Assembly (NCBI RefSeq): GCF_000069225.1
Contig: NC_010407.1
Location: forward strand, 1,922,001-1,986,000
Reading direction: 5' to 3'
Source of the DNA: Clavibacter sepedonicus
GTDB lineage: Bacteria; Actinomycetota; Actinomycetes; Actinomycetales; Microbacteriaceae
DNA length: 64,000 nt
Part shown: piece by piece, positions 4,080 to 64,000 of the stretch
Layout: every line of letters starts with the position of its first letter
Numbering within the stretch: the first letter of the stretch is position 1
Made by a program: the position numbers and the translations under genes
The notes under the pieces: model-generated
Told to the model about the DNA's origin: nothing
The model's input: the letters and a program-made list of their open reading frames with translations, nothing else
Databases searched by the model: none

Positions 4080-7000
4080 GCTCGTTCCACCTCGATGTAC
4101 AGGGGCGATCCGCCGCCGACGGTGATGCCGGGGTCCGGATCCGCCGGTGCGTCCGCGTCGATCCGCAGCGCCACCGCCAGGGTCTCACGGGCGATGAGGT
4201 CGCGGAACCGCTCCGCCTGCTCCGCGCCCGCCGCGTCCAGCCGGATCACGAGGGAGATGCGGTCGCTCACGTCGAGGCCCGCGCCCTTCCGCGCGTCCTG
4301 GACGTTGCGCACCACGTCGCGCGCGAGCCCCTCGGCCTCGAGCTCGGGCGTGAGCGCGGTGTCGAGCAGCAGGTACCCGCCGCCCGGCAGGAGCGCGAGC
4401 GCCTGGTCGGCGCGGTCACCGGCCACCTCCAGCACGAGCTCGTACTCGCCGGCCACGAGCGGCGTGCCGCCCGCGACGACCTCGCCGTCGACTTCCGTCC
4501 AGTCGCCCTCGCGGGCGGCCTGGATCACCTGCTGCACGCCCTTGCCGAGGCGGGGCCCGGCGACGCGCGCGTTCACCGTGAGGCGGCGCGTGATGCCGGC
4601 GTCCGCCGCGCTCGTCGGCGTCAGCTCCTCGACGGCCACGGCCTTGACGTTGAGCTCGTCGCGCAGGATGTCCTCGAAGCGCGCGAGGCCGTCGGCGTCG
4701 TCGCTCACGACCGTCAGGCGCGCGAGCGGCTGGCGCACGCGGAGGCCGGACTGCTTGCGGAGCGAGAGCGCGGTCGAGGCGACCTGACGGACCCGGTCCA
4801 TCACCTCGACGAGGCGGTCGTCCGCGGGCAGGTCGTCGGGTTCGGGCCAGTCCTCCAGGTGGACGCTGCGCCCGCCCGTGAGGTCCTTCCAGATCCGCTC
4901 GGACACGAGCGGCAGCAGCGGCGCGGCGACGCGCGTCACGGTCTCGAGGACCGTGTACAGGGTGTCGAACGCGCGCGTGTCGCCGGCTTCCGTACCCGCC
5001 CAGAAGCGGTCGCGGCTGCGGCGCACGTACCAGTTGGTGAGCACGTCGGCGAAGTCGCGGAGGGAGGCCGCGGCCAGCGTCGAGTCGAGGGCGGTCATGT
5101 GCTCCGTGACCTCGGTGACGAGGCGGCGGGTGCGGGCCAGGACGTAGCGGTCCAGCACGTCGTCGCTCGTCGTGTCGCGGTGCGCCTCGTAGCCGCCGGG
5201 CTGCGCGGAGTTGGCGTAGAGGGAGAAGAAGTACCAGGTGCTCCAGAGCGGGAGCAGCACCTGGCGGACGCCCTCGCGGATCCCCTCCTCGGTGACGACG
5301 AGGTTGCCGCCGCGGAGCACGGGGCTCGCGAGGAGGAACCAGCGCATGGCGTCGGATCCGTCGCGGTCGAACACCTCGTTCACGTCCGGGTAGTTGCGGA
5401 GCGACTTCGACATCTTCTGGCCGTCGTTGCCGAGCACGATGCCGTGGCTGACGACGCTCGAGAACGCCGGCCGCCCGAACAGCGCGGTCGACAGCGCGTG
5501 CAGCGTGTAGAACCAGCCGCGGGTCTGGCCGATGTACTCGACGATGAAGTCCGCCGGGCTGTGCGCGTCGAACCACTCGCGGTTCTCGAACGGGTAGTGC
5601 ACCTGCGCGAAGGGCATGGATCCCGAGTCGAACCAGACGTCGAGCACGTCCTCGATGCGGCGCATGGTGGAGCGACCGGTCGGGTCGTCGGGGTTCGGGC
5701 GCGTGAGCCCGTCGATGAACGGGCGGTGCAGGTCGGTCGGCCGCACGCCGAAGTCCGCCTCGAGCTCGTCGAGGCTGCCGTACACGTCGATGCGCGGGTA
5801 CGCGGGGTCGTCGCTCTTCCACACGGGGATGGGGCTGCCCCAGAACCGGTTGCGCGAGATGGACCAGTCGCGGGCGTTGCCGATCCACTTGCCGAACTGG
5901 CCGTCCTTGACGTTCTCCGGCGTCCACTCGATGTCCTGGTTGAGGCGCACCATGTCGTCGCGGAAGTCGGTGACGCGCACGAACCAGCTGGAGACCGCCT
6001 TGTAGATGAGCGGGTTCTTGCAGCGCCAGCAGTGCGGGTAGGAGTGCTCGTAGCTGGCCTGGCGGATCAGGCGGCCCTGCGCCTTGAGCATGCGCGTGAG
6101 GGTCCTGCCGGCGTCCGACCACAGCTCGCCCGCGACCTCGGGGACGCTGTCGACGAAGCGGCCGCCCTCGTCGAGCGACAAGATCACGGGGATCCCGGCG
6201 GCGGCGCAGACCTGCTGGTCCTCCTCGCCGTAGGCCGGTGCCTGGTGGACGATGCCGGTGCCGTCGGTGGTCGTGACGTAGTCGGCGACGAGCACCTGCC
6301 ACGCGTTCTCGGTGCCGAAGACCTCGGTGTCGGCGTAGAAGTCCCAGAGCCGGTCGTACGCGACGCCCTCGAGCTCGCGGCCGAGCACGGTGCGGGAGAC
6401 GGCGGCGCGGGCATCCTCCGCGGACGCGTAGCCGAGGTCCTTGGCGTAGTTCCCCACCAGGTCCTGGGCGATGAGGTACTCGGATCCGAGCACCTCGGCC
6501 GCGAGCCGCACCGACGACTCGCGGGGCAGCGCGTCGGGCGCCTCGGAGTCGGGCGCGCCCGCGGGGCCGGCGGGGACGACGGCGTAGACGATGTCGGGCC
6601 CGACCGCGAGCGCCATGTTCGTCGGGAGGGTCCAGGGCGTGGTCGTCCAGGCGAGCGCGCGCACGGCGGTGAGGCCGAGCGACTCCGCCTTGGCGCCGAC
6701 GAGGGGGAACGTGACCGTGACGGACTGGTCCTGGCGCATGCGGTAGACGTCGTCGTCCATCCGCAGCTCGTGGTTGCTCAGGGGGGTCTGGTCGTGCCAG
6801 CAGTAGGGCAGCACGCGGAAGCCCTCGTAGGCGAGGCCCTTCGTGTGCAGCTGCTTGAACGCCCAGATGACCGACTCCATGAAGTCGAGGTCGAGCGTCT
6901 TGTAGTCGTCCTCGAAGTCGACCCAGCGGGCGGAGCGGGTGACGTAGTCCTCCCACTCGCCCGTGTACTCGAGCACCGAGCGGCGGGCGACGGCGTTGAA

Positions 7001-9675: not shown

Positions 9676-10316
9676 GAGCGGGCCGGACCCCCCGCGTCCG
9701 CGTCGGCGCCAGCGTCGGCGTCGGCGTCGGCGGAACCGTCGTCGTCGTGGTCGTCGTCGTGCTCGTCGTCCCGCGCGGCGAGCACGGGTGCGAGCACCGC
9801 GCGGACCGCCGCGGCCCCGTCGTCGTTCAGGTGCAGTCGGTCGTCCGTGAGGGTGGGAGCGAGCTCGCCGTCGCCGAAGCCGAGGGCGGGCCACAGGTCC
9901 ACGTGCTCGGCGCGGACGGCGCGCGCGTACTGGCGGGTGTGGACGTTGACGACGCGGATCCGCTCGGCGTGCTCACGCTGGCGTGGCGGCACCGAGAGCA
10001 CGACGATCCGGGCCGCGGGCAGGTCGCGTCGCAGGTGCGCGAGGATCGTCTCCAGCCCGCGGACCGTCTCCTCGGGACCGCGCCGCGCGGATCCCAGGTC
10101 GTGCGTGCCGCAGGACACCACGACCGTCGAGGGATCGGCGGCCACGGCCTCCGGCAGGAGCCCGAGCACGTCGTCGGTCCGCTGGCCTGGCCGGCCGAGG
10201 TCCACGATCCGCGCCCCGTCCGCGTCGCCGTCGGGCCCGGGGACGATGCCGCCCCAGCCGCCGTCCCCCGTCAGGCTGTCGCCCAGGAGGACGGTCGTGC
10301 GTTCGCGCGGTGCCAT
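9672..10316 (-). CDS. SGNH/GDSL-type hydrolase
   Basis: A 214-residue probable esterase or lipase without signal peptide. It shows the block I motif LLGDSLTGDGG (residues ~10-20) with the nucleophile serine in GDSL, a block III-like CGTHD, and the C-terminal DRLHLNDDG with the catalytic Asp and His three residues apart. The tail is an acidic Asp/Ala repeat (DDEHDDDHDDDGSADADADAG), probably disordered. Substrate cannot be told from sequence. An AGAGG ribosome site lies about 8 nt before ATG 10316. Confidence 0.82.
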   Translation of the reverse strand: MAPRERTTVLLGDSLTGDGGWGGIVPGPDGDADGARIVDLGRPGQRTDDVLGLLPEAVAADPSTVVVSCGTHDLGSARRGPEETVRGLETILAHLRRDLPAARIVVLSVPPRQREHAERIRVVNVHTRQYARAVRAEHVDLWPALGFGDGELAPTLTDDRLHLNDDGAAAVRAVLAPVLAARDDEHDDDHDDDGSADADADAGADADAGGPARS

Positions 10317-10383
10317 GGATCCGCCTCTCGTCGTGCCCATCATGGTCCCCGCGCCCGCGGAAGTCACCGGATCCGGGCCGACC

Positions 10384-10833
10384 TCAGCCGCGCTGCCGGC
10401 GCGCCACGCGTCGCCACCTCCGGCGCTGGCGCGGGGACAGGACGAGCACGGCGACGGCGATGAGGAGCGGGAGGGACAGGATCGTCGCCACGAGGGCGCC
10501 CGCCTGCCCGGGGTTGAGCGGGATGCCGAGCACGTCGATGGTGACGCGCGACGCGGCGCAGTCGGTGAGGTCGGTGACGCCGCGGTCGTCGGCCGCGTCC
10601 ACCGGCACGGGCTTCCACGCCTCGGAGGCCGCCGGGTCGGGCGTGCCCTTCGCCGACGGCGTCCGGCCGGCCGCGGACCCGTCACCCGAGATGATCGCGA
10701 GGTCGGCCCGCGCCTGCACGGGCGCCGACACGCTCATCGTCACCGCGGTCGCGAGGCCGGCCGACGCGAGGGCGATGCCCACGAGGGTCAGGAGGATCAG
10801 GCCGATGCGCGGGGCCCCGATCCGCCGGCTCAC
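10384..10833 (-). CDS. Hypothetical membrane protein with extracytoplasmic loop
   Basis: A 149-residue protein that I do not recognise. It has an N-terminal helix (residues ~9-32), a polar loop of about 80 residues with one cysteine, and a second helix (~115-137) followed by a strongly basic tail (RQRRRWRRVARRQRG), which predicts both ends in the cytoplasm. The GTG start overlaps the stop of the SDR gene upstream (GTGA), so the two are co-translated. Function unknown. Confidence 0.7.
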   Translation of the reverse strand: MSRRIGAPRIGLILLTLVGIALASAGLATAVTMSVSAPVQARADLAIISGDGSAAGRTPSAKGTPDPAASEAWKPVPVDAADDRGVTDLTDCAASRVTIDVLGIPLNPGQAGALVATILSLPLLIAVAVLVLSPRQRRRWRRVARRQRG

Positions 10834-12356
10834 CGCGCGGCCCCCTCGAGAGCGCGCTCGGCCTCGCGGCGCTTCGTCGCGGCGAGCGCCTTCGCGGTGA
10901 TCCGGGTGGCCATCGACGTGAAGATCACGCCGTGGAAGGGCAGGATCGAGAACCAGTACAGGCGGCCGGCGAGCCCGGAGGGGAAGAAGATCGCGCGCTG
11001 CCGGTAGTCGCTGCCGCCGCCCTCGCGGGGCGTGGAGCTCAGCTCGAGCCATGCCTCGCCGGGCACCTTCATCTCGGCGCGCAGCCGCAGCGAGGATCCG
11101 CGCTCGATGTTCTCGACACGCCAGAAGTCCAACGCGTCGCCCGTCTGCAGGGTCGTCGCGCTGCGTCGGCCGCGACGCAGGCCCACGCCGCCGGCGAGCT
11201 TGTCCATCCAGCCGCGGGCGGCCCATGCGACCGGCAGCGAGTACCAGCCGTTCTCTCCGCCGATCGACTCGATCACGGCCCAGAGGTCCTCGGGCGCCGC
11301 GTCGGTCGAGCGCTCCTTGAGGTCGAGGTACACGGTGTGGCCCGACCAGTCGGGGTCGCTCGGCAGCAGGTCGCTGGGCGCGCCGACCACGGCCGAGTCC
11401 TTCCAGCTGGTCTCGACGACGCCGTCGCGCATCCGGCCGAGGGCGAGGCGCACGGAGCGGCGGTAGCCGGTGAGGCCGCCCTCGGGATCCGGGATGTAGC
11501 TCGAGATGTCGTGCTCGCCCATCACGCAGTCGTACTGCAGCGACTCGATGATCGGCACCGCGAGCGACCTCGGGATGGGCGTGACGACGTTGACCCAGTG
11601 CGCGGCGAGGCGCGGGGCGAAGACCGGGATGGAGGCGATGGGCCGCTGCGGCAGGCCGGCCTCGACCGCGTAGCCGTTCATCATCTGCCCGTAGCGGAGC
11701 ACGTCGGGCCCGCCGATGTCGAAGGTGCGGTTGAGGCCGTCCGGCAGGTCGGCCGCGGCGACGAGGTAGTACAGCACGTCGCGGATCGCGATGGGCTGGA
11801 TGAAGTTGCGCACCCACCCGGGCGCGGGCATGAAGGGCAGGACCTCGGTGAGGTGGCGGATCATCTCGAACGACGTAGAGCCGGATCCGATGACCACGCC
11901 CGCCTGCAGCGCGATGGTCGGCACGCCGCTCGCGAGCAGCACGTCGCCCACGGCCTTGCGGCTCGCGAGGTGCTTCGAGAGCTCCGGGGTGTCGGGGTGC
12001 AGCCCGCCCAGGTAGACGATGCGGCCCACGCCCGCGGCCTTCGCCGCGGTGGCGACGTGCTCGGCGGATGCGCGCTCGGACGAGGCGAAGTCGCCCTTCG
12101 ACCCCATGCCGTGCACGAGGTAGTAGAGGACGTCGACGCCGTCGACCGCGGGCACGAGGGTGGCGGCATCCGACAGGTCGCCCTGCACCACCTCCACGTC
12201 GTCGCGCCAGGGGACGTCGGTGAGGCGGCGGGGATCGCGCACGAGCACGCGCACCCGGAATCCGGCGTCGAGCAGGCGGGGCACGAGCCGACCGCCGATG
12301 TAGCCCGTCGCTCCGGTCACGAGGGCGAGACGGGAGGCGGCGCTCGGCGAAGTCAT
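10830..12356 (-). CDS. NAD(P)-dependent SDR family protein fused to DUF2867
   Basis: A 508-residue protein. Residues 10-300 form an atypical short-chain dehydrogenase / NAD(P)-binding Rossmann domain with the dinucleotide motif TGATGYIGG near the N-terminus, and the C-terminal ~180 residues resemble the DUF2867 domain, a START-like fold. Such fusions are common in bacteria and are annotated as NAD(P)H-binding or epimerase-like proteins of unknown substrate. ATG 12356 follows a TAGCGT -10 box by 6 nt, so the mRNA appears leaderless. It is co-translated with the small membrane protein downstream. Confidence 0.82.
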   Translation of the reverse strand: MTSPSAASRLALVTGATGYIGGRLVPRLLDAGFRVRVLVRDPRRLTDVPWRDDVEVVQGDLSDAATLVPAVDGVDVLYYLVHGMGSKGDFASSERASAEHVATAAKAAGVGRIVYLGGLHPDTPELSKHLASRKAVGDVLLASGVPTIALQAGVVIGSGSTSFEMIRHLTEVLPFMPAPGWVRNFIQPIAIRDVLYYLVAAADLPDGLNRTFDIGGPDVLRYGQMMNGYAVEAGLPQRPIASIPVFAPRLAAHWVNVVTPIPRSLAVPIIESLQYDCVMGEHDISSYIPDPEGGLTGYRRSVRLALGRMRDGVVETSWKDSAVVGAPSDLLPSDPDWSGHTVYLDLKERSTDAAPEDLWAVIESIGGENGWYSLPVAWAARGWMDKLAGGVGLRRGRRSATTLQTGDALDFWRVENIERGSSLRLRAEMKVPGEAWLELSSTPREGGGSDYRQRAIFFPSGLAGRLYWFSILPFHGVIFTSMATRITAKALAATKRREAERALEGAAR

Positions 12357-55343: not shown

Positions 55344-58300
55344 TCACTTCGACAGCTGCACCGCGCCCGTCGCCCGCTGGTAGGCGGCGAAGTACTTGTC
55401 ACCCATGGCCCGGGCGCCTGCCGCCGTGTAGTGGATCGAGTCCTCGGCCCTGCTGTACCCCGCGGCTCCCGGGATGTACGACACGTTCGACCGCAGCGCG
55501 GGCATGCCCTGCTGCGCGGTGTCGATGGCCTGGCGCTGCGACGACACGTTCAGCCACTCGGGCACCATGCCGCCGATGAGGAACGGCACCGCGCCGTACC
55601 GGGTGTTCAGCCGGTCGACGAGGTCGAGCAGCATCGACTGGTATCCCGCCGCGTTCGTGCGGGTCGCGTCGGACTCGCCCTGGGCCCAGACGACCGCGAC
55701 GAGGCGGTTGTCGGGATCCTGCGCGAGCGCGGCGTCGATCTGGCCGAGCGCGCGCGTGAACAGGTTGATGCGCGAGCGCGTGTCCGCCGGGTTCCACGCG
55801 TAGGTTCCGTCCCCGGTCATCGACGTGGACGCCATCGCGGCGGGGACGAGCAGCACCTTGCGACTCGGGCGGGCGTCGGCGAGCATGTGCCGACCGAGCT
55901 CCATCCCGGGGCCGACGGCCTGGACGCCGCCGGAGGTCGTCCAGGTGGTCACGTGGCTCAGCGAGTCCTTGGCGGGCACGATCTGCCCGGCCTTGGCACC
56001 GCTGCCGGCGAGCTGGTCAAGCCCGGGCACGCTCACGTCGATCGACGGATCCCATCCGGTGCCGACGCCCTGCGCGTTCGACTGGCCGAGGACCACGACG
56101 ACGTCGTAGCCCTCCCCGGTCGACGCGATCTGGCACGGCACGGAGGTGCGGGACGTCGGCGCGTAGCCGTCGGCCCGACCGGTGACGGTCACGGTGATCT
56201 GCGATCCCGCGTCGCGCGGCGCCGGCACGTAGGTCGATGCGGTGCGGCCGGGCACGACCACGCCATTGCGCTGCCAGACGTAGGAGTACGAGGTGGCGAC
56301 CGGGGTCCATCCGGGCGTCTCGGCCGTGAGGGCGGATCCGACGGCGGCCTCGCCCGTGATGGTCGGGCTCGGCGCGTCCGCGAACGGCTGGTCGTCGGGC
56401 GACGGTGCGGGCTGGGCGGGCGGCACGTCGAGGGCGTCGACCACGACGGCGGTCGGCTCGCTCGTCACGCTCGTCGCCTTGTAGCCCGTGCGCGTGCCGG
56501 TGACGGTCACGGTGATCCGCGACCCGGCGTCCGCGCGGCGCACGGCGTACGTCGCGTCGGTCGCGCCGAGCACGGTGACGCCGTCCCGGGCCCAGGCGTA
56601 GGCGTAGGCGGTGGCCTCCGGCGTCCACGCGGCCGTCTCCACCCGCAGCGAGCCGCCGGCGACGGGCGGTCCCTGGATCACCGGCGCGGTCGTCGCCTCG
56701 AACGGCACGGCCGGGGCGGGCGGCGGCGGAGTCACCGGCGTCACGACGACGGCGACGCCCGGGCTGGTCACGGTCTGCGTGACGTAGCCGGTCTTCGTGC
56801 CCGTGACGGCGACGGAGATGCCCGTGCCGACGTCACCCGCCACGACGCGGTAGCTCGGGCCGGTCTGGTCGGGGATCACGACGCCGTCGCGCAGCCACGC
56901 GTAGGAGAAGGACGGCCACGGCGACCAGGTGCCGGACTTGGCCGTGAGCGTGTAGTCCACGCGACCGAGTCCGGTGATGGACGGCGTGCCGGCCGTCTCG
57001 AACGCGACGTCGGGGGCGGGCGTCGGGTCGGGCGTGGGCACGGTCGGCTCGGGCGTCGGCTCGGGCAGCGGCACGAGGAGCCCGGCGCTGGTGAGGGACT
57101 GCGTGACGTACCCGGTCTTCGTGCCGGTGACGTTCACGGCGATGGTGGTGCCCTGGTCGCCCTCCTGCACGCGGTAGGTGACGGCGGTCTGGTCGGCGAT
57201 GGCGACGCCGTCGCGGGTCCACTGGTAGGAGAAGGCGGGCCAGGGGGTCCACACCCCGGCGCGCGCGGACAGCGTGAAGCCGACGCGGGCGGTGCCGCCG
57301 ATGGTCGGGGTCGCGGCGGCCGAGAACGGCGCGTCCTCCTGCGGCGGGGTGGTGGGATCCGGGGTCGGCGTGCCGGGGGTAGCGGTGGGCGTGGGCGTCG
57401 GCGTGCTCGCGGCGGGGACCTGGAGCTCCGCGCTCGTCAGGGACTGCGTCGCGTACCCGGTCTTCGTGCCGGTGACGGTGACGCTGATGCGGGATCCGGC
57501 ATCCCCGGCCTGCACGCGGTAGGTGACGCCGGTCTGCCCGGCGATCACCACGCCGTCGCGCAGCCAGGCGTAGGAGAACGTGGGCCACGGGGTCCAGACG
57601 CCGGCGCGCGCGGAGAGCGTGAAGCCGACGCGCGCGGTCCCGGCGATGATGGGCGTCGCGGCGGCCGTGAAGGGCGCTGCCGCGGGCATGGTCGGCGCGG
57701 GGGTCGGGGCGGTGGTCGGCGCGACGGTGGGCGTCGGCGTGGGGGTCGGCGCCTGCGTCGGCGTCGGCGTCGGCGTGGGCGCCGTCGTCGGAGCGGCGGT
57801 CGGCGTGGCCGTGGGCGCCGCGGTCGGCGTCGGGGTCGGGGTAGCGCCCGGCACGGTCATCGGGTCGCTCGTCCGGGTCGTCGTCGCGTACCCGGTCTTC
57901 GTGCCGGTGACCGTCACGGCGAGGGCCGCCCCGCGGTCCTGCTCGGTGACGCGGTAGGTCACGCCGGTCTGCCCGGCGATGAGCACCCCGTCGCGGGTCC
58001 AGGAGTAGGAGAACGTCGGCCACGGGGTCCAGGTGCCGGCCCGCGCGGTGAGCGTGAAGCCGACCTGCGGGGATCCGGCGATGGTGGGCGTCGGGGCGGA
58101 CGAGAACTGCGCGACGACGGGCGTCGGGACGGTCGCGGTCGGCACGCTCGTCTGCGTGCTGGTGTCGTACCCGGAGCGGCTGCCCGTGACGGCGACGGTG
58201 ATGACGGATCCCGCGTCGGCGGCGCGCACGGTGTACGCGGTGCTCGTCTACCCGCTCACGGGCACGCCGTCGACGAGCCACGCGTACGTGCTCGTCGTCG

Positions 58301-59441: not shown

Positions 59442-60104
59442 TCAGATCCCGGTGTAGCGCCCCGGCCGGTGGTTGAGCGCGAGCACCAGGTTGAGCAGCA
59501 CCGCGCCGAGCGCCGACCACACGACGCCCTCGAGCGGCACGACCGTGAGGCCGAGCAGGATCACGATCACGTCGAGGATCATCTGCGCGTACCCGGCGGG
59601 GAAGCCGAACCGCTCCTGCACGATGAGCGCGACGATGTTGAAGCCGCCGAGGCTGGATCCGTGGCGGAAGACCACCAGCAGCCCGATCCCCACGAGCAGG
59701 TTCCCCGCGAGCACGCCGTAGACCGGCTGCAGCTCGAGCCCGGTGACCATGGCGGGATGCAGCGTCGAGAACAGCGACACGAGCGCGACCGAGATGACCG
59801 TGCGGATCGTGAACCGCCACCCCTTCTTCCACACCGCGAGCGCGAAGAACGGCGCATTGACCACGAAGAACAGCACCCCGAACGGCAGCACGCCCGTGTA
59901 GCTCAGCAGCAGCGCGAGCCCCGCGGTGCCGCCCGTGACGGCGCCGGCGTCCCGCAGCAGGTACAGCCCGAACGAGGCGACGAAGGTGCCGGTGAGGATC
60001 CCCAGCACGTCCTCGATGACCGAGTGCGGGATGCCGGCGGTCGTCGGCTCGTCGGGCGAGGGGGCGATCGGCGTGGGCAGGGGCTCGGACGCGGAAGCGG
60101 TCAT
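59442..60104 (-). CDS. YitT family (DUF161) membrane protein
   Basis: A 220-residue membrane protein with five or six helices. VLGILTGTFVASFGLYLLRD, GAVTGGTAGLALLLSY, FGVLFFVVNAPFFALAVWKKG and RHGSSLGGFNIVALIVQERF are YitT signatures. The usual C-terminal DUF2179 domain is missing. Function unknown, probably transport. ATG 60104 is chosen over an upstream start with Pro-rich sequence. Confidence 0.85.
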   Translation of the reverse strand: MTASASEPLPTPIAPSPDEPTTAGIPHSVIEDVLGILTGTFVASFGLYLLRDAGAVTGGTAGLALLLSYTGVLPFGVLFFVVNAPFFALAVWKKGWRFTIRTVISVALVSLFSTLHPAMVTGLELQPVYGVLAGNLLVGIGLLVVFRHGSSLGGFNIVALIVQERFGFPAGYAQMILDVIVILLGLTVVPLEGVVWSALGAVLLNLVLALNHRPGRYTGI

Positions 60105-60230
60105 GGCGGTCTCCGGGGTGGGGGGGGACGGGATCCGCGCGGGCGGTCGTGCCGCATCACGCGCAGGGAACAGCATGGCGGATCGGCGGGGTGGCGGAGG
60201 ACGGGGCCGCCGCCCCAGGCGCTCGCGGGC

Positions 60231-60755
60231 TCAGATCGGGCCGTCGAAGGGGTCGACGTCGAAGTACCCCTGGGAGGTTCGCCGCCTCCGCCTCCCGACG
60301 AGGCGTTCGATGGATCGGCGCTCCCCCGTCATCATGCTGTCCCAGCGTCGCTCCGAGTCGCGGACGAACCACGCCCGCGCCTCCTGCCACGCCTCCGGCG
60401 ACGCGTCCCACTCCACCTCGAGCACGGTCGTGACGACGTCGATGATCGACCCCTCGGGTGCGGGCGCGAACGCCCCCTCGGCGGTTCCCACCGTCCAGTC
60501 GTACTCGCCGTCGCCGTACCGGAGCACGTCCTCCGGGAGCTTCAGGCGGTAGGCGTCGTCACGGAGGAAGAAGTCGTTGCCGTTGCGCCGCGCCATCACC
60601 CACGGGTGCGGGTACCCGGAGAGACGGATGCAGCCTGCGATCCCGGACGGCAGCCAGTCGTCGTACGCCGGGACGGCGGGGTTGCGGAGGAACGAGCGAG
60701 CGGGGTAGGGCGACTCCGGCTCGACAGGCGGGCGGCGGCGCCGGAGGCGGATCAC
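60231..60755 (-). CDS. Hypothetical protein, third gene after the Rhs toxin
   Basis: A 174-residue soluble protein with a basic N-terminus (IRLRRRRPP) and no membrane segment. Features are an acidic, Trp-rich middle (RYGDGEYDWTVGTAEG, VLEVEWDASPEAWQEARAWF) and a basic stretch near the end (RLVGRRRRRTS). The GTG start overlaps the stop of the preceding gene. Its position as the last member of an Rhs-linked string suggests an immunity or accessory role, but no family was recognised. Confidence 0.62.
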   Translation of the reverse strand: MIRLRRRRPPVEPESPYPARSFLRNPAVPAYDDWLPSGIAGCIRLSGYPHPWVMARRNGNDFFLRDDAYRLKLPEDVLRYGDGEYDWTVGTAEGAFAPAPEGSIIDVVTTVLEVEWDASPEAWQEARAWFVRDSERRWDSMMTGERRSIERLVGRRRRRTSQGYFDVDPFDGPI

Positions 60756-61261
60756 GACGGCTGCCTGCGCCCGGCCAGCGGGCCGAGCCCTCGGGAGCGG
60801 ACGCGACCACCGAGCCGGCGCAGCCGGGAGCCGATGCCGCGCCGCTCCCGGCCCACGGTGCTGACGATGTCCCAGCAGGCCCCCGCCGCGTCGAGCCGCC
60901 ACTGCGGATCGATGTCATGCGGCAGGTGGATCAGCTCGTGCCTCAGCTCCGTGAACGTCGTCGCGCTCGAGATCGGCGCGAGGAGCTCCACCGGGATGGG
61001 CTCCTCGACGAAGGCTGTCTGATCGGCCCATGCTTTCATCTCGTGCAAGCGATCGCTGATGTCGGAGAACGTGTCCATCACATTGCGCATGAGCGCGCGG
61101 TAGGTGGCACCCGGTACCAGGTGCAGCGCGCGCGACGCCTCGTCCGAGAGCAGGTCGCGGGCGCCCCACAGGTACTCGACGTGGAACACCCCGTCGTCAG
61201 CGACCCACATGCGCGCTCCTCCCAATCCCTGCGCGCCGGTGCGTGGCCGCAGGACGATCAC
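60752..61261 (-). CDS. Hypothetical protein, second gene after the Rhs toxin
   Basis: A 169-residue soluble protein starting at a GTG that overlaps the stop of the preceding gene; ATG 61210 is an alternative start. The middle is helical with FTELRHELIHLPHDID, where the two histidines and acids could bind metal but no protease signature is complete. Function unknown. Overlaps at both ends show that the three genes 60231-61833 are one transcript. Confidence 0.62.
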   Translation of the reverse strand: MIVLRPRTGAQGLGGARMWVADDGVFHVEYLWGARDLLSDEASRALHLVPGATYRALMRNVMDTFSDISDRLHEMKAWADQTAFVEEPIPVELLAPISSATTFTELRHELIHLPHDIDPQWRLDAAGACWDIVSTVGRERRGIGSRLRRLGGRVRSRGLGPLAGRRQPS

Positions 61262-61833
61262 GACGCATTCAGATACTCCAGGAAGTCCTCGATGAGGCCG
61301 GACCGCAGCTCCTCGTTGCAGATGCGCGCATCCGCTGACATCAGGAGATCGCGCAGGGACAGATCGGATCCGCGCAGGAATATGTAGACGCAGACCTCGC
61401 TCGGGTCGAGCACCTCTGCCCGGTCGCCGTGGGGCAAGCGATTGATGATCCCCGAGAGCATGGAGGCCGCCCGTCGACCCGGGAGCATGGGAACCACGTA
61501 GGCCGGGAACATCTCGTCCGCGCGAGCGTCACCGGCCGGCTCGCCCACCTCTCCGGCGCCGGACGTCAGTCGATCACCGAGGGCGCGGATGATCTCCATC
61601 CGGATCTCGTCCTGGGCATCGTCGCGGTCAGCGCCCAAGGGATCCCTCAGGGCGCCGACCAACGCATGCACTTCCTGGCGTCGCAATGCGATGACCGTGC
61701 CACTCGACGGCGAGAGGATCGTGCCCCTGTGCCGCTCAGCGACTGCCACCAGCGCACGAGTGACCCATGACGGTCTTGCTCCCCTTGGCCGGATCCAGAT
61801 GTGCCACTCTGCTTCCGGCTCGTCCCGTGACAC
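61258..61833 (-). CDS. Hypothetical protein directly after the Rhs toxin, immunity candidate
   Basis: A 191-residue acidic soluble protein. Its GTG start immediately follows the TGA that ends the Rhs toxin frame, with no gap, which is the place of the cognate immunity gene in polymorphic toxin loci. Notable parts are EWHIWIRPRGARPSWVT and the helical C-terminus SLRDLLMSADARICNEELRS. No immunity family was recognised, and the link is by position only. Confidence 0.62.
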   Translation of the reverse strand: MSRDEPEAEWHIWIRPRGARPSWVTRALVAVAERHRGTILSPSSGTVIALRRQEVHALVGALRDPLGADRDDAQDEIRMEIIRALGDRLTSGAGEVGEPAGDARADEMFPAYVVPMLPGRRAASMLSGIINRLPHGDRAEVLDPSEVCVYIFLRGSDLSLRDLLMSADARICNEELRSGLIEDFLEYLNAS

Positions 61834-62187
61834 TCAGTCCCCAATCCGCTTGGTCAGATATTTGTCCCACGTGCCGCCGCGGGTCGTCTTGCTATTGAGG
61901 CCGGCAACAGAATTAGCCCTTTTCCAGTAGCCGCCGTTGTGACCACCGGTCGGGTCACTTCCACGATCATAGGTGATGTAGTCATTCTTCCCCTTCTTGA
62001 AGATCGCCCGACCCTTGGCCGAACGTGCCTTGATCTTTGTATAACCTTTCTCCTTTGCGACTTCAGCCGCTTCTTTGTCTGTTACCGCGTGCCCCTTGCC
62101 AGCATTAGGATTCTTCGGCTTACTGAACGTCTGGCGTATCCAGGGAAATGCGGTCGTCTTGATCCAAGAGCCGATCTGCTGCCCTAT
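61834..62187 (-). pseudogene. Toxin tip (RNase-like, Ntox21-type) cut off from the Rhs frame by TAG
   Basis: A 117-codon open stretch in the same frame as the Rhs core, just after an in-frame TAG at 62188-62190. There is no ATG or GTG to start it alone. It encodes a basic domain with HAVTDKEAAEVAKEKGYTKI, then DYITYDRGSDPTGGHNGGYW and KTTRGGTWDKYLTKRIGD. The HNGGxWK and SKTTRxGTWD pattern resembles toxin domains at the end of CdiA/Rhs-type proteins (Ntox21-like, thought to be RNases); recognition is by eye. Its base composition is near 50% GC, much lower than the rest of the locus, so it was probably acquired separately. Confidence 0.65.
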
Positions 62188-64000
62188 CTACCACGCGCCC
62201 AGGACTATGGCGGTAGCGAGGACCGCAAGACCGAGGGCAACGACGAGGAGGACAGCGAGGGGGATCAAGAACGCGAATTGCCCGGTCAGGTCGAACGAGT
62301 TGACCGGATCGTTCGGATACGCGTAGTCGTCATCCGTCCCACCCAGCACCGGATCCACCTGCAGGAACCGACCCAGCGCCGCGACGTACTGCCTCGCACC
62401 CATCTCGATGGTCGCGATGCCACCCAGGTGCTCCGACAGCTTCTGGTGCTGACCCAGCCACCCGTAGTCCGCGTTCCCCTGCTGCGTGTCCAGACCCGAC
62501 TGGTTCGCCGCCACCGTGCCCAGCGCACCCGTCTTCGGATCCTCGACCTGACCGAACGGGTCGTACACCGCGAGCCCCGGCGCACGCGTCCCGGCCTGAT
62601 CCGCCGTGACGAGGATGTCACCGTGGATGCCCGGGTACGACCACACGGCCGACCCGTTGCGGAACTCCGCCGTCACCCCACCCGGCAGCGGCAGATCCCA
62701 CTCGGTCGCCGTGCTCGAGACGTCGAGCACGAAGTCCGGCGCATCGCCGCTCCCCGTGAAGCCGTAGCGCGTGACCGTCGTCACGCCCGCCGCGGTCACC
62801 TCCGTCCGCTGCACGATCCGGTCGGTCGCGTCGCGCATGTAGGAGACCGACGCACCGTCGGCCAGCTTGGTGGCCGTGTGCCGGTCCCCGCCGTCGTACG
62901 ACAGGGTCTCGTCGGCGAGCTGCACCGTGTTGCCGTGCGCGTCGTAGACGAGCTGCGCCGCGCTCAGCGAGCGGTTCACCGGTGATGCGTCCGCCGGGGC
63001 GTTCGTCACCGTGGTGCCCAGGAGCCGGTCCGCGCCATCGTAGCAGGACGCCACCGTGGTGGGCGTCCCGCCGTCGAGCACGTCGGACGAGGCCGTCCGG
63101 TTGCCGTTCCGACCGGCCGCCGCGACCGCGCCGGCCTGGGTGCACGCCGAGGATCCGGCGAGCGCATCGAACCCGTAGGTCAGACGGTGGTGCGGGATCA
63201 CCGCGGTAACGAGTCGCCCGGCGGCGTCGTACGAGTACGTCGAGACGTTGCTCGTCGTGCCGTCGCTCGTGGTGTCCTGGAGCACGTCGCCCGCCTGCGA
63301 GCGGATGACCCGATCGGTGACGGCGGTCTGCTTCCCGGGGAACGACCAGCCGATCCCGGTCACCGCGCCTGCGCCGTTCCGCGTGATCTCGGAGAGCGAC
63401 GAGTCGTTGCCGGCGCCGTTCGCACCCGACGGGTAGGAGATGCCCGTGAGCTCGCCCTTCGCGTACGTGGGATCGGCGATGACCTTGCCGTCCACGCGCA
63501 TCACGTCGACCCGGGAGTCGATGTCGTACTCGTAGGAGGTGGTGTGCGCGGTGCCGGAGGGCGGCGTCGCGACCGTCGAGGTGACCCGGCCCGCCGCGTC
63601 GTACGACATGGTCGTGACCGTGCCCCAGACGTCGGTGTACTTGACAGCCTGCCCGAGGAGGTTCGCGACCGTCGTGACGGTGCCACCACTCGTGGATCCG
63701 GTGACAGATCCGTCCGAGACCGCTCCGGTGAGCGGATCCCCGCCGACCGCGTAGTCCGTCTTCTCCGTGCGCGCCGCGACCGACCCGAAGGCGGCCGTGG
63801 TGCTCGAGGTGGCGCGCCCGCGGGCGTCGTAGCTCGTGCACGACCAGTCGGCGTCGCCGGAGCGTTTGGATCCGATCGCGCGCCCCATCACGTCGTAGAC
63901 GAACGAGGTGACGATGGCGTCGCCCGATGCGGGCTTCGCTCCGGTGGTGGTCTTCGTCCCCCCGTACTGCGGCGTGGAGGCGTCGACGCCGCAGACCTTG
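62188..64000 (-). CDS. RHS repeat-associated core protein, 3' part (continues beyond window)
   Basis: About 604 codons of a large Rhs/YD-repeat protein are visible; the 5' part lies beyond 64000. YD repeats such as YDAAGRVTST, YDVMGRAIGS and YDAAGRLVTA, many GRxT-type turns and the closing core motif GRFLQVDPVLGGTDDDYAYP, then DPVNSFDLTG, are present. After it a hydrophobic stretch (FLIPLAVLLVVALGLAVLAT) ends at TAG 62188-62190, and the toxin tip continues in frame. Rhs proteins form a cocoon that carries the C-terminal toxin; in Gram-positives they are exported and act on neighbouring cells. Confidence 0.9.
   Translation of the reverse strand, partial: KVCGVDASTPQYGGTKTTTGAKPASGDAIVTSFVYDVMGRAIGSKRSGDADWSCTSYDARGRATSSTTAAFGSVAARTEKTDYAVGGDPLTGAVSDGSVTGSTSGGTVTTVANLLGQAVKYTDVWGTVTTMSYDAAGRVTSTVATPPSGTAHTTSYEYDIDSRVDVMRVDGKVIADPTYAKGELTGISYPSGANGAGNDSSLSEITRNGAGAVTGIGWSFPGKQTAVTDRVIRSQAGDVLQDTTSDGTTSNVSTYSYDAAGRLVTAVIPHHRLTYGFDALAGSSACTQAGAVAAAGRNGNRTASSDVLDGGTPTTVASCYDGADRLLGTTVTNAPADASPVNRSLSAAQLVYDAHGNTVQLADETLSYDGGDRHTATKLADGASVSYMRDATDRIVQRTEVTAAGVTTVTRYGFTGSGDAPDFVLDVSSTATEWDLPLPGGVTAEFRNGSAVWSYPGIHGDILVTADQAGTRAPGLAVYDPFGQVEDPKTGALGTVAANQSGLDTQQGNADYGWLGQHQKLSEHLGGIATIEMGARQYVAALGRFLQVDPVLGGTDDDYAYPNDPVNSFDLTGQFAFLIPLAVLLVVALGLAVLATAIVLGAW

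What the first reader, a model, noticed from the sequence alone, without database searches (positions are those of the whole stretch)
61834..64000. Rhs toxin whose RNase-like tip is separated by an in-frame TAG
The Rhs core ends ...LGAW-TAG, and the next 117 codons, in the same frame, encode an AT-rich basic toxin-like domain with no start codon of its own. The following gene begins at the very next base. Either a nonsense mutation disarms the toxin, or the TAG is read through at low level, which would be a novel way to ration a toxin. The AT-rich tip against a GC-rich core is the known pattern of tip exchange.
Basis: partly seen in the sequence, partly recalled or inferred. Interest (0 to 1): 0.75.

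Follow-up and report, generated by a model that had tools for sequence, protein, structure and literature searches.

The report
Rhs toxin gene with two stops
A gene predicted to arm a plant-pathogenic Clavibacter (very likely the potato ring rot bacterium) with a toxin against rival bacteria carries two in-frame stop signals, not one, so it is likely a recently broken gene in a decaying genome rather than a toxin rationed by leaky stops.

Summary
On the minus strand a TAG (62188-62190) interrupts an Rhs gene, and the 117 in-frame codons after it match Ntox21 (PF15526, 71.2 bits). The rest of the gene, fetched from the same genome, has a second in-frame stop: a TGA after codon 1103, 1,341 bases past the window end. 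Making the tip from the gene's own start would need both stops to be passed. Five of five related Clavibacter loci are open at the TGA, and three of three with an alignable junction are open at the TAG. No stop-reading tRNA was found among 45. The pieces keep low dN/dS against the nearest relative (0.09-0.14), so the breaks look recent. A 717-aa protein on another contig ends exactly at the TAG, so a base-call error there is unlikely. Verdict: a recently inactivated Rhs/Ntox21 gene, its tip probably exchanged by the known orphan-cassette route. Readthrough rationing is not supported. The tip's family includes a known 16S rRNase toxin.

The parts
61834..62187 (-). Ntox21 tip piece: neck plus toxin domain, 117 codons and its own TGA stop (61834-61836)
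   Evidence: PF15526 71.2 bits over residues 43-117; translation; neck and toxin identities
62188..62190 (-). In-frame TAG, second of two stops in the gene
62191..62277 (-). Hydrophobic 29-codon segment before the toxin, part of the exchanged tip
   Evidence: identity to relatives falls to 71-78% from this point
62278..64000 (-). Rhs core with RHS/YD repeats, the part inside the window; the gene runs on to window coordinate 68652 (G000:C2:1990652) and carries an in-frame TGA at window coordinates 65341-65343
   Evidence: PF05593, TIGR01643, TIGR03696
61258..61833 (-). 191-aa gene right after the tip, open; predicted immunity gene by position, no family match
   Evidence: relatives in the same 5 other genomes that hold the Rhs locus, one of them partial
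60752..61261 (-). 169-aa gene of the same array; diverged second copies lie beside Rhs cassettes in G003 and G012
60231..60902 (-). 223-aa gene of the same array; diverged second copies lie beside Rhs cassettes in G003 and G008

Best explanation
The gene has two in-frame stops, a TGA after codon 1103 (beyond the window) and the reported TAG at 62188-62190, so it is likely a recently inactivated Rhs toxin gene whose intact ancestor would have delivered a predicted ribosome-cutting Ntox21 tip into rival bacteria. Shown: both stops, open frames in relatives at both places, the Ntox21 match, the core/tip identity boundary and the low dN/dS of every piece. Inferred: the ancestor was a secreted Rhs protein with its immunity gene directly downstream. 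In two relatives (G001, G008) this tip sits on a separate cassette downstream of a main Rhs gene, so the window's arrangement probably arose by recombination between shared core sequences. Later the lineage, described as confined to plant vascular tissue and accumulating pseudogenes, likely lost the need for the weapon, and two nonsense mutations became fixed. The downstream gene is still open and may still protect against neighbours that carry the same tip.
For: Two in-frame stops in one 2272-codon frame. Open at the TGA in 5 of 5 relatives and at the TAG in 3 of 3 with an alignable junction. Main gene is a single frame of 2253, 2284 and 2263 aa in G001, G008 and G012. Ntox21 at 71.2 bits; Rhs core above cut-off. 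dN/dS window-G008: 0.093 before the TGA, 0.133 between the stops, 0.139 in the tip. No stop-reading tRNA among 45 detected, and no tRNA-Sec above cut-off. P0126 (717 aa, 100% identical) ends exactly at the TAG on a 46,488-base contig. Same locus broken by other lesions in G003 and, within the Ntox21 tip, in G009 and G008.
Against: dN/dS shows no relaxation in any piece, which a recent break explains but so would continued use. The TGA was seen in one assembly only. P0003, a 101-aa tip-only protein on 13 contigs, is recorded with a start at tip residue 17, which could mean that some annotation treats the tip as a gene. The immunity role of the 191-aa gene has no family support.
Confidence: 0.93

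Rival explanations
1. The stops are leaky and ration the toxin: rare readthrough yields a little full-length Rhs-Ntox21.
For: The frame after each stop is open and keeps low dN/dS.
Against: Two stops in series; sense codons in relatives at both places (5 of 5, 3 of 3); no stop-reading tRNA found among 45 and no tRNA-Sec above cut-off; relatives are broken by other lesions, frame changes included.
Confidence: 0.02
2. One or both stops are sequencing or assembly errors in this genome, and the gene is whole in the living organism.
For: Low dN/dS everywhere; no other lesion in 2272 codons; the TGA was seen in one assembly only.
Against: P0126 on another contig ends exactly at the TAG, and the tip is recorded as a separate protein on 13 contigs. 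Two independent base errors that both give stops are unlikely.
Confidence: 0.03
3. The tip is a gene of its own, started inside the neck, and the stop simply ends the Rhs core protein.
For: P0003 is listed as a 101-aa protein starting at tip residue 17; short Ntox21 proteins P0004 and P0005 are listed in other Clavibacter.
Against: The codon at that place in the window is ATA; no ATG/GTG/TTG-started ORF of 60 aa or more lies in the tail; no sigma-70-like promoter at 61700-62400 (a weak test). Short records can be gene-caller output from broken or orphan cassettes.
Confidence: 0.02

Closest known systems
Rhs polymorphic toxins with orphan Rhs-CT/RhsI cassettes (PMC3150448, passages; PMC3967940, abstract)
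   Same: Conserved core, exchanged tip, small gene directly downstream, and downstream orphan cassettes with core fragments in relatives. Main-orphan recombination is reported in Salmonella.
   Different: The main gene here carries two in-frame stops; the downstream gene matches no immunity family; the host is a Gram-positive actinobacterium.
Ntox21 toxins; founder CdiA-CT of Enterobacter cloacae ATCC 13047, PDB 4NTQ, tabulated as a 16S rRNase (PMC9086364 and PMC7033585, passages)
   Different: Carried by Rhs rather than CdiA; cut off from its carrier by stops; the His-containing loop is longer than in P0009, P0016 and P0082; activity untested.
Pseudogenes of C. sepedonicus (PMC9190974 and PMC5358740, passages)
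   Same: Nonsense mutation in a gene that relatives keep open; niche restriction with low competition is the explanation given there.
   Different: This gene is not named in the passages that I saw; the word Rhs occurs in neither main text.

Membership tests
Rhs polymorphic toxin | RHS/YD repeats and Rhs-associated core domain | tested here: met
   PF05593 47.9 bits (cut-off 22), TIGR01643 42.1 (15.8), TIGR03696 37.2 (32.5)
Rhs polymorphic toxin | Exchanged C-terminal tip behind a conserved core | tested here: met
   Identity step at 62277/62278; the same tip lies on orphan cassettes in G001 and G008
Rhs polymorphic toxin | Cognate immunity gene directly downstream | tested here: inconclusive
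   191-aa gene at the next base, conserved beside the locus, but no family match
Rhs polymorphic toxin | One open frame from start to tip (a working gene) | tested here: not met
   TGA and TAG in frame: filed as a pseudogene of this family, not as a working member
Ntox21 | Match above the curated cut-off | tested here: met
   71.2 against 25 bits
Ntox21 | Fold of CdiA-CT ECL (BECR-like) | tested here: inconclusive
Ntox21 | Catalytic residues (D203, D205, H207, K214 in ECL) | tested here: inconclusive
   Asp, His and Lys conserved among 7 compared tips, with a longer loop before the His in the Clavibacter tips and P0006; not aligned residue by residue to ECL
Ntox21 | RNase activity | not testable with these tools
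   Reported for the E. cloacae member, not for this one
Programmed stop codon readthrough | Stop kept at the same place in relatives | tested here: not met
   Sense codon in 5 of 5 (TGA) and 3 of 3 (TAG) relatives
Programmed stop codon readthrough | A single stop in an otherwise open frame | tested here: not met
   Two stops
Programmed stop codon readthrough | A tRNA able to read the stop (one route only; near-cognate reading needs none) | tested here: not met
   45 of 45 tRNAs typed as sense; the 11 tRNA-Sec matches are below cut-off and lie on tRNAs already typed
Pseudogene | Lesions in a frame that relatives keep open | tested here: met

The most novel reading that the evidence does not exclude
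Both stops are leaky checkpoints in a still-used gene: readthrough of a TGA and a TAG in series makes a tiny dose of full-length Rhs-Ntox21, a two-lock rationing of a toxin.
Probability: 0.02. Interest if true: 0.85.

Novelty: new member of a known kind. Interest (0 to 1): 0.18.

Why it matters
It replaces a tempting readthrough story with a plain one: the next stretch of the same gene holds a second stop. It likely adds a weapon against competitors to the genes lost by a pathogen thought to live with little competition. It also shows, in one genus, a main Rhs gene, orphan cassettes and several independent breaks of Rhs/Ntox21 genes. That is useful for dating niche restriction, but it is not a new mechanism.

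Tried and rejected

Papers, what I saw: PMC9190974, PMC5358740, PMC3482391, PMC3150448, PMC9086364, PMC7033585 and PMC6256548: passages found by term. PMC3967940: abstract and outline. Others: search listings only. That the species stands on a crop-pathogen control list is recalled and comes from no call.

Full report
What is there. On the minus strand the window ends inside an Rhs gene. Its frame stops at a TAG (62188-62190) and stays open for 117 more codons to a TGA at 61834-61836; a 191-aa gene starts with GTG at 61833. The tail matches Ntox21, PF15526, at 71.2 bits (cut-off 25) over its residues 43-117; the part before the TAG matches the Rhs-associated core and RHS repeats.

The rest of the gene. 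The window is G000:C2:1922001-1986000 of a genome of 3,403,786 bases in 3 contigs. That total is the size printed for Clavibacter michiganensis subsp. sepedonicus ATCC 33113 (now C. sepedonicus) in Table 2 of PMC5358740, with 114 pseudogenes, the most of five subspecies (passages). Past the window (L025), the upstream part of the gene is a 1103-codon frame that ends in a TGA at C2:1987341-1987343, 1,341 bases beyond the window end. After six codons it is followed in the same frame by the 1044-codon piece that ends at the TAG. From the ATG to the codon before the final TGA there are 2272 codons, two of them stops. The tip cannot be made from the gene's start without passing both.

Relatives. 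Of 18 genomes of the genus searched, 6 hold this Rhs locus, the window's own included. At the TGA position the frame is open in 5 of 5 relatives (L026-L030). At the TAG position the junction could be aligned in 3 relatives and is a sense codon in all 3. The main gene is one frame of 2253, 2284 and 2263 aa in G001, G008 and G012; whether their own tips are whole was not tested. Not all relatives are intact. G003 changes frame near codon 303 and has an in-frame TAG at another place. In G008 the Ntox21 copy is a downstream orphan cassette with a stop at the fourth codon of the tip piece and a frame change in its core fragment. In G001 the orphan cassette is open over the tip. P0006, a 2268-aa protein of unnamed source with an Ntox21 domain, shows that uninterrupted main Rhs proteins with such a tip exist.

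When it broke. dN/dS between the window and G008 is 0.093 before the TGA (1103 codons), 0.133 between the stops (1015 of 1044 codons compared) and 0.139 in the tip (116 codons); for G001-G008 it is 0.091 and 0.106 in the first two, and undefined in the tip. Synonymous:nonsynonymous changes assigned to the window lineage with G001 as outgroup are 47:6, 86:30 and 6:0, against 27:7, 40.5:10.5 and 11:1 on the G008 side. The gene was thus under selection for most of its history and the breaks look recent. These values cannot exclude that some piece is still used. dS in the tip (0.70) is far above that of the core pieces (0.10 and 0.20), which fits separate ancestry of the tip.

Is the TAG real? P0126, a 717-aa protein identical to residues 328-1044 of the piece between the stops, ends exactly at the TAG and lies on a 46,488-base contig, so presumably in another assembly. 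P0003, the tip alone, is recorded on 13 contigs. I could not read those contigs, and they may come from the same or closely related strains. P0003 starts with M where the window has ATA, which I cannot explain. The TGA was not checked in a second assembly.

Readthrough. All 45 RF00005 matches in the genome were typed, 30 through loci and 15 through fetched stretches; none has an anticodon for TAG, TGA or TAA. A tRNA-Sec search gave 11 matches, all below cut-off and all on tRNAs already typed. Near-cognate readthrough would need no such tRNA, so this is a partial test. With two stops in series, sense codons in relatives and frame changes among the relatives' lesions, I give readthrough rationing 2%.

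Anatomy of the tip. DNA identity to relatives is 89.5-98.3% in the last two core blocks and 71.3-78.2% in the 29 codons before the TAG, where only three loci match. The exchange boundary is therefore at 62277/62278, and the TAG lies inside the exchanged tip, between a hydrophobic segment and a neck that G003 carries in front of a different end. The toxin part is 54% GC, the neck 55%, the adjoining core blocks 65-71%. In G001 and G008 this tip sits on an orphan cassette downstream of a main gene with another end; in the window it sits directly on the main core. Recombination between main gene and orphan, as reported for Salmonella in PMC3967940 (abstract), is the likely route; it is inferred here.

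Why it broke. PMC9190974 (passages) describes C. sepedonicus as almost entirely restricted to plant vascular tissue, with low competition, with pseudogenes making up 3.4% of predicted coding sequences, most by nonsense mutation, frameshift and partial deletion. Loss of a weapon against bacterial rivals fits that picture; this last step is inference.

Verdict. A real but ordinary feature: a doubly stopped Rhs/Ntox21 pseudogene with its predicted immunity gene still open.

Noticed in passing
L027 (G003), oriented positions about 3303 and 6483-6485: The main Rhs gene of this relative is broken by other lesions: a frame change near codon 303 and an in-frame TAG elsewhere.
   Followed up: partly
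L028 (G008) 10626-10976 and L029 (G009) about 10189-10411: Two further Ntox21 tips in the genus are broken: a stop at the fourth codon of an orphan tip in G008, a frame change inside the domain in G009.
   Followed up: partly
window 61882-62187, tip residue 17: The database protein P0003 begins with M at tip residue 17, where the window has ATA; either a non-standard start in annotation or an allele with a different codon.
   Followed up: partly
window 60752-61261 and 60231-60902: Two genes without family match that have diverged second copies beside Rhs cassettes in G003, G008 and G012; they may be left-over immunity genes of lost tips.
   Followed up: no
window 59442-60176: YitT-family gene: its first 18 residues match all five relatives in another frame than the rest, so the window's ORF may have a frame change or a later true start.
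   Followed up: no
window 55344-58229: 961-aa protein with several similar Ig-like-looking repeats (by eye) and low-complexity linkers; one below-cut-off match, NF040485 at 50 bits against 100.
   Followed up: no
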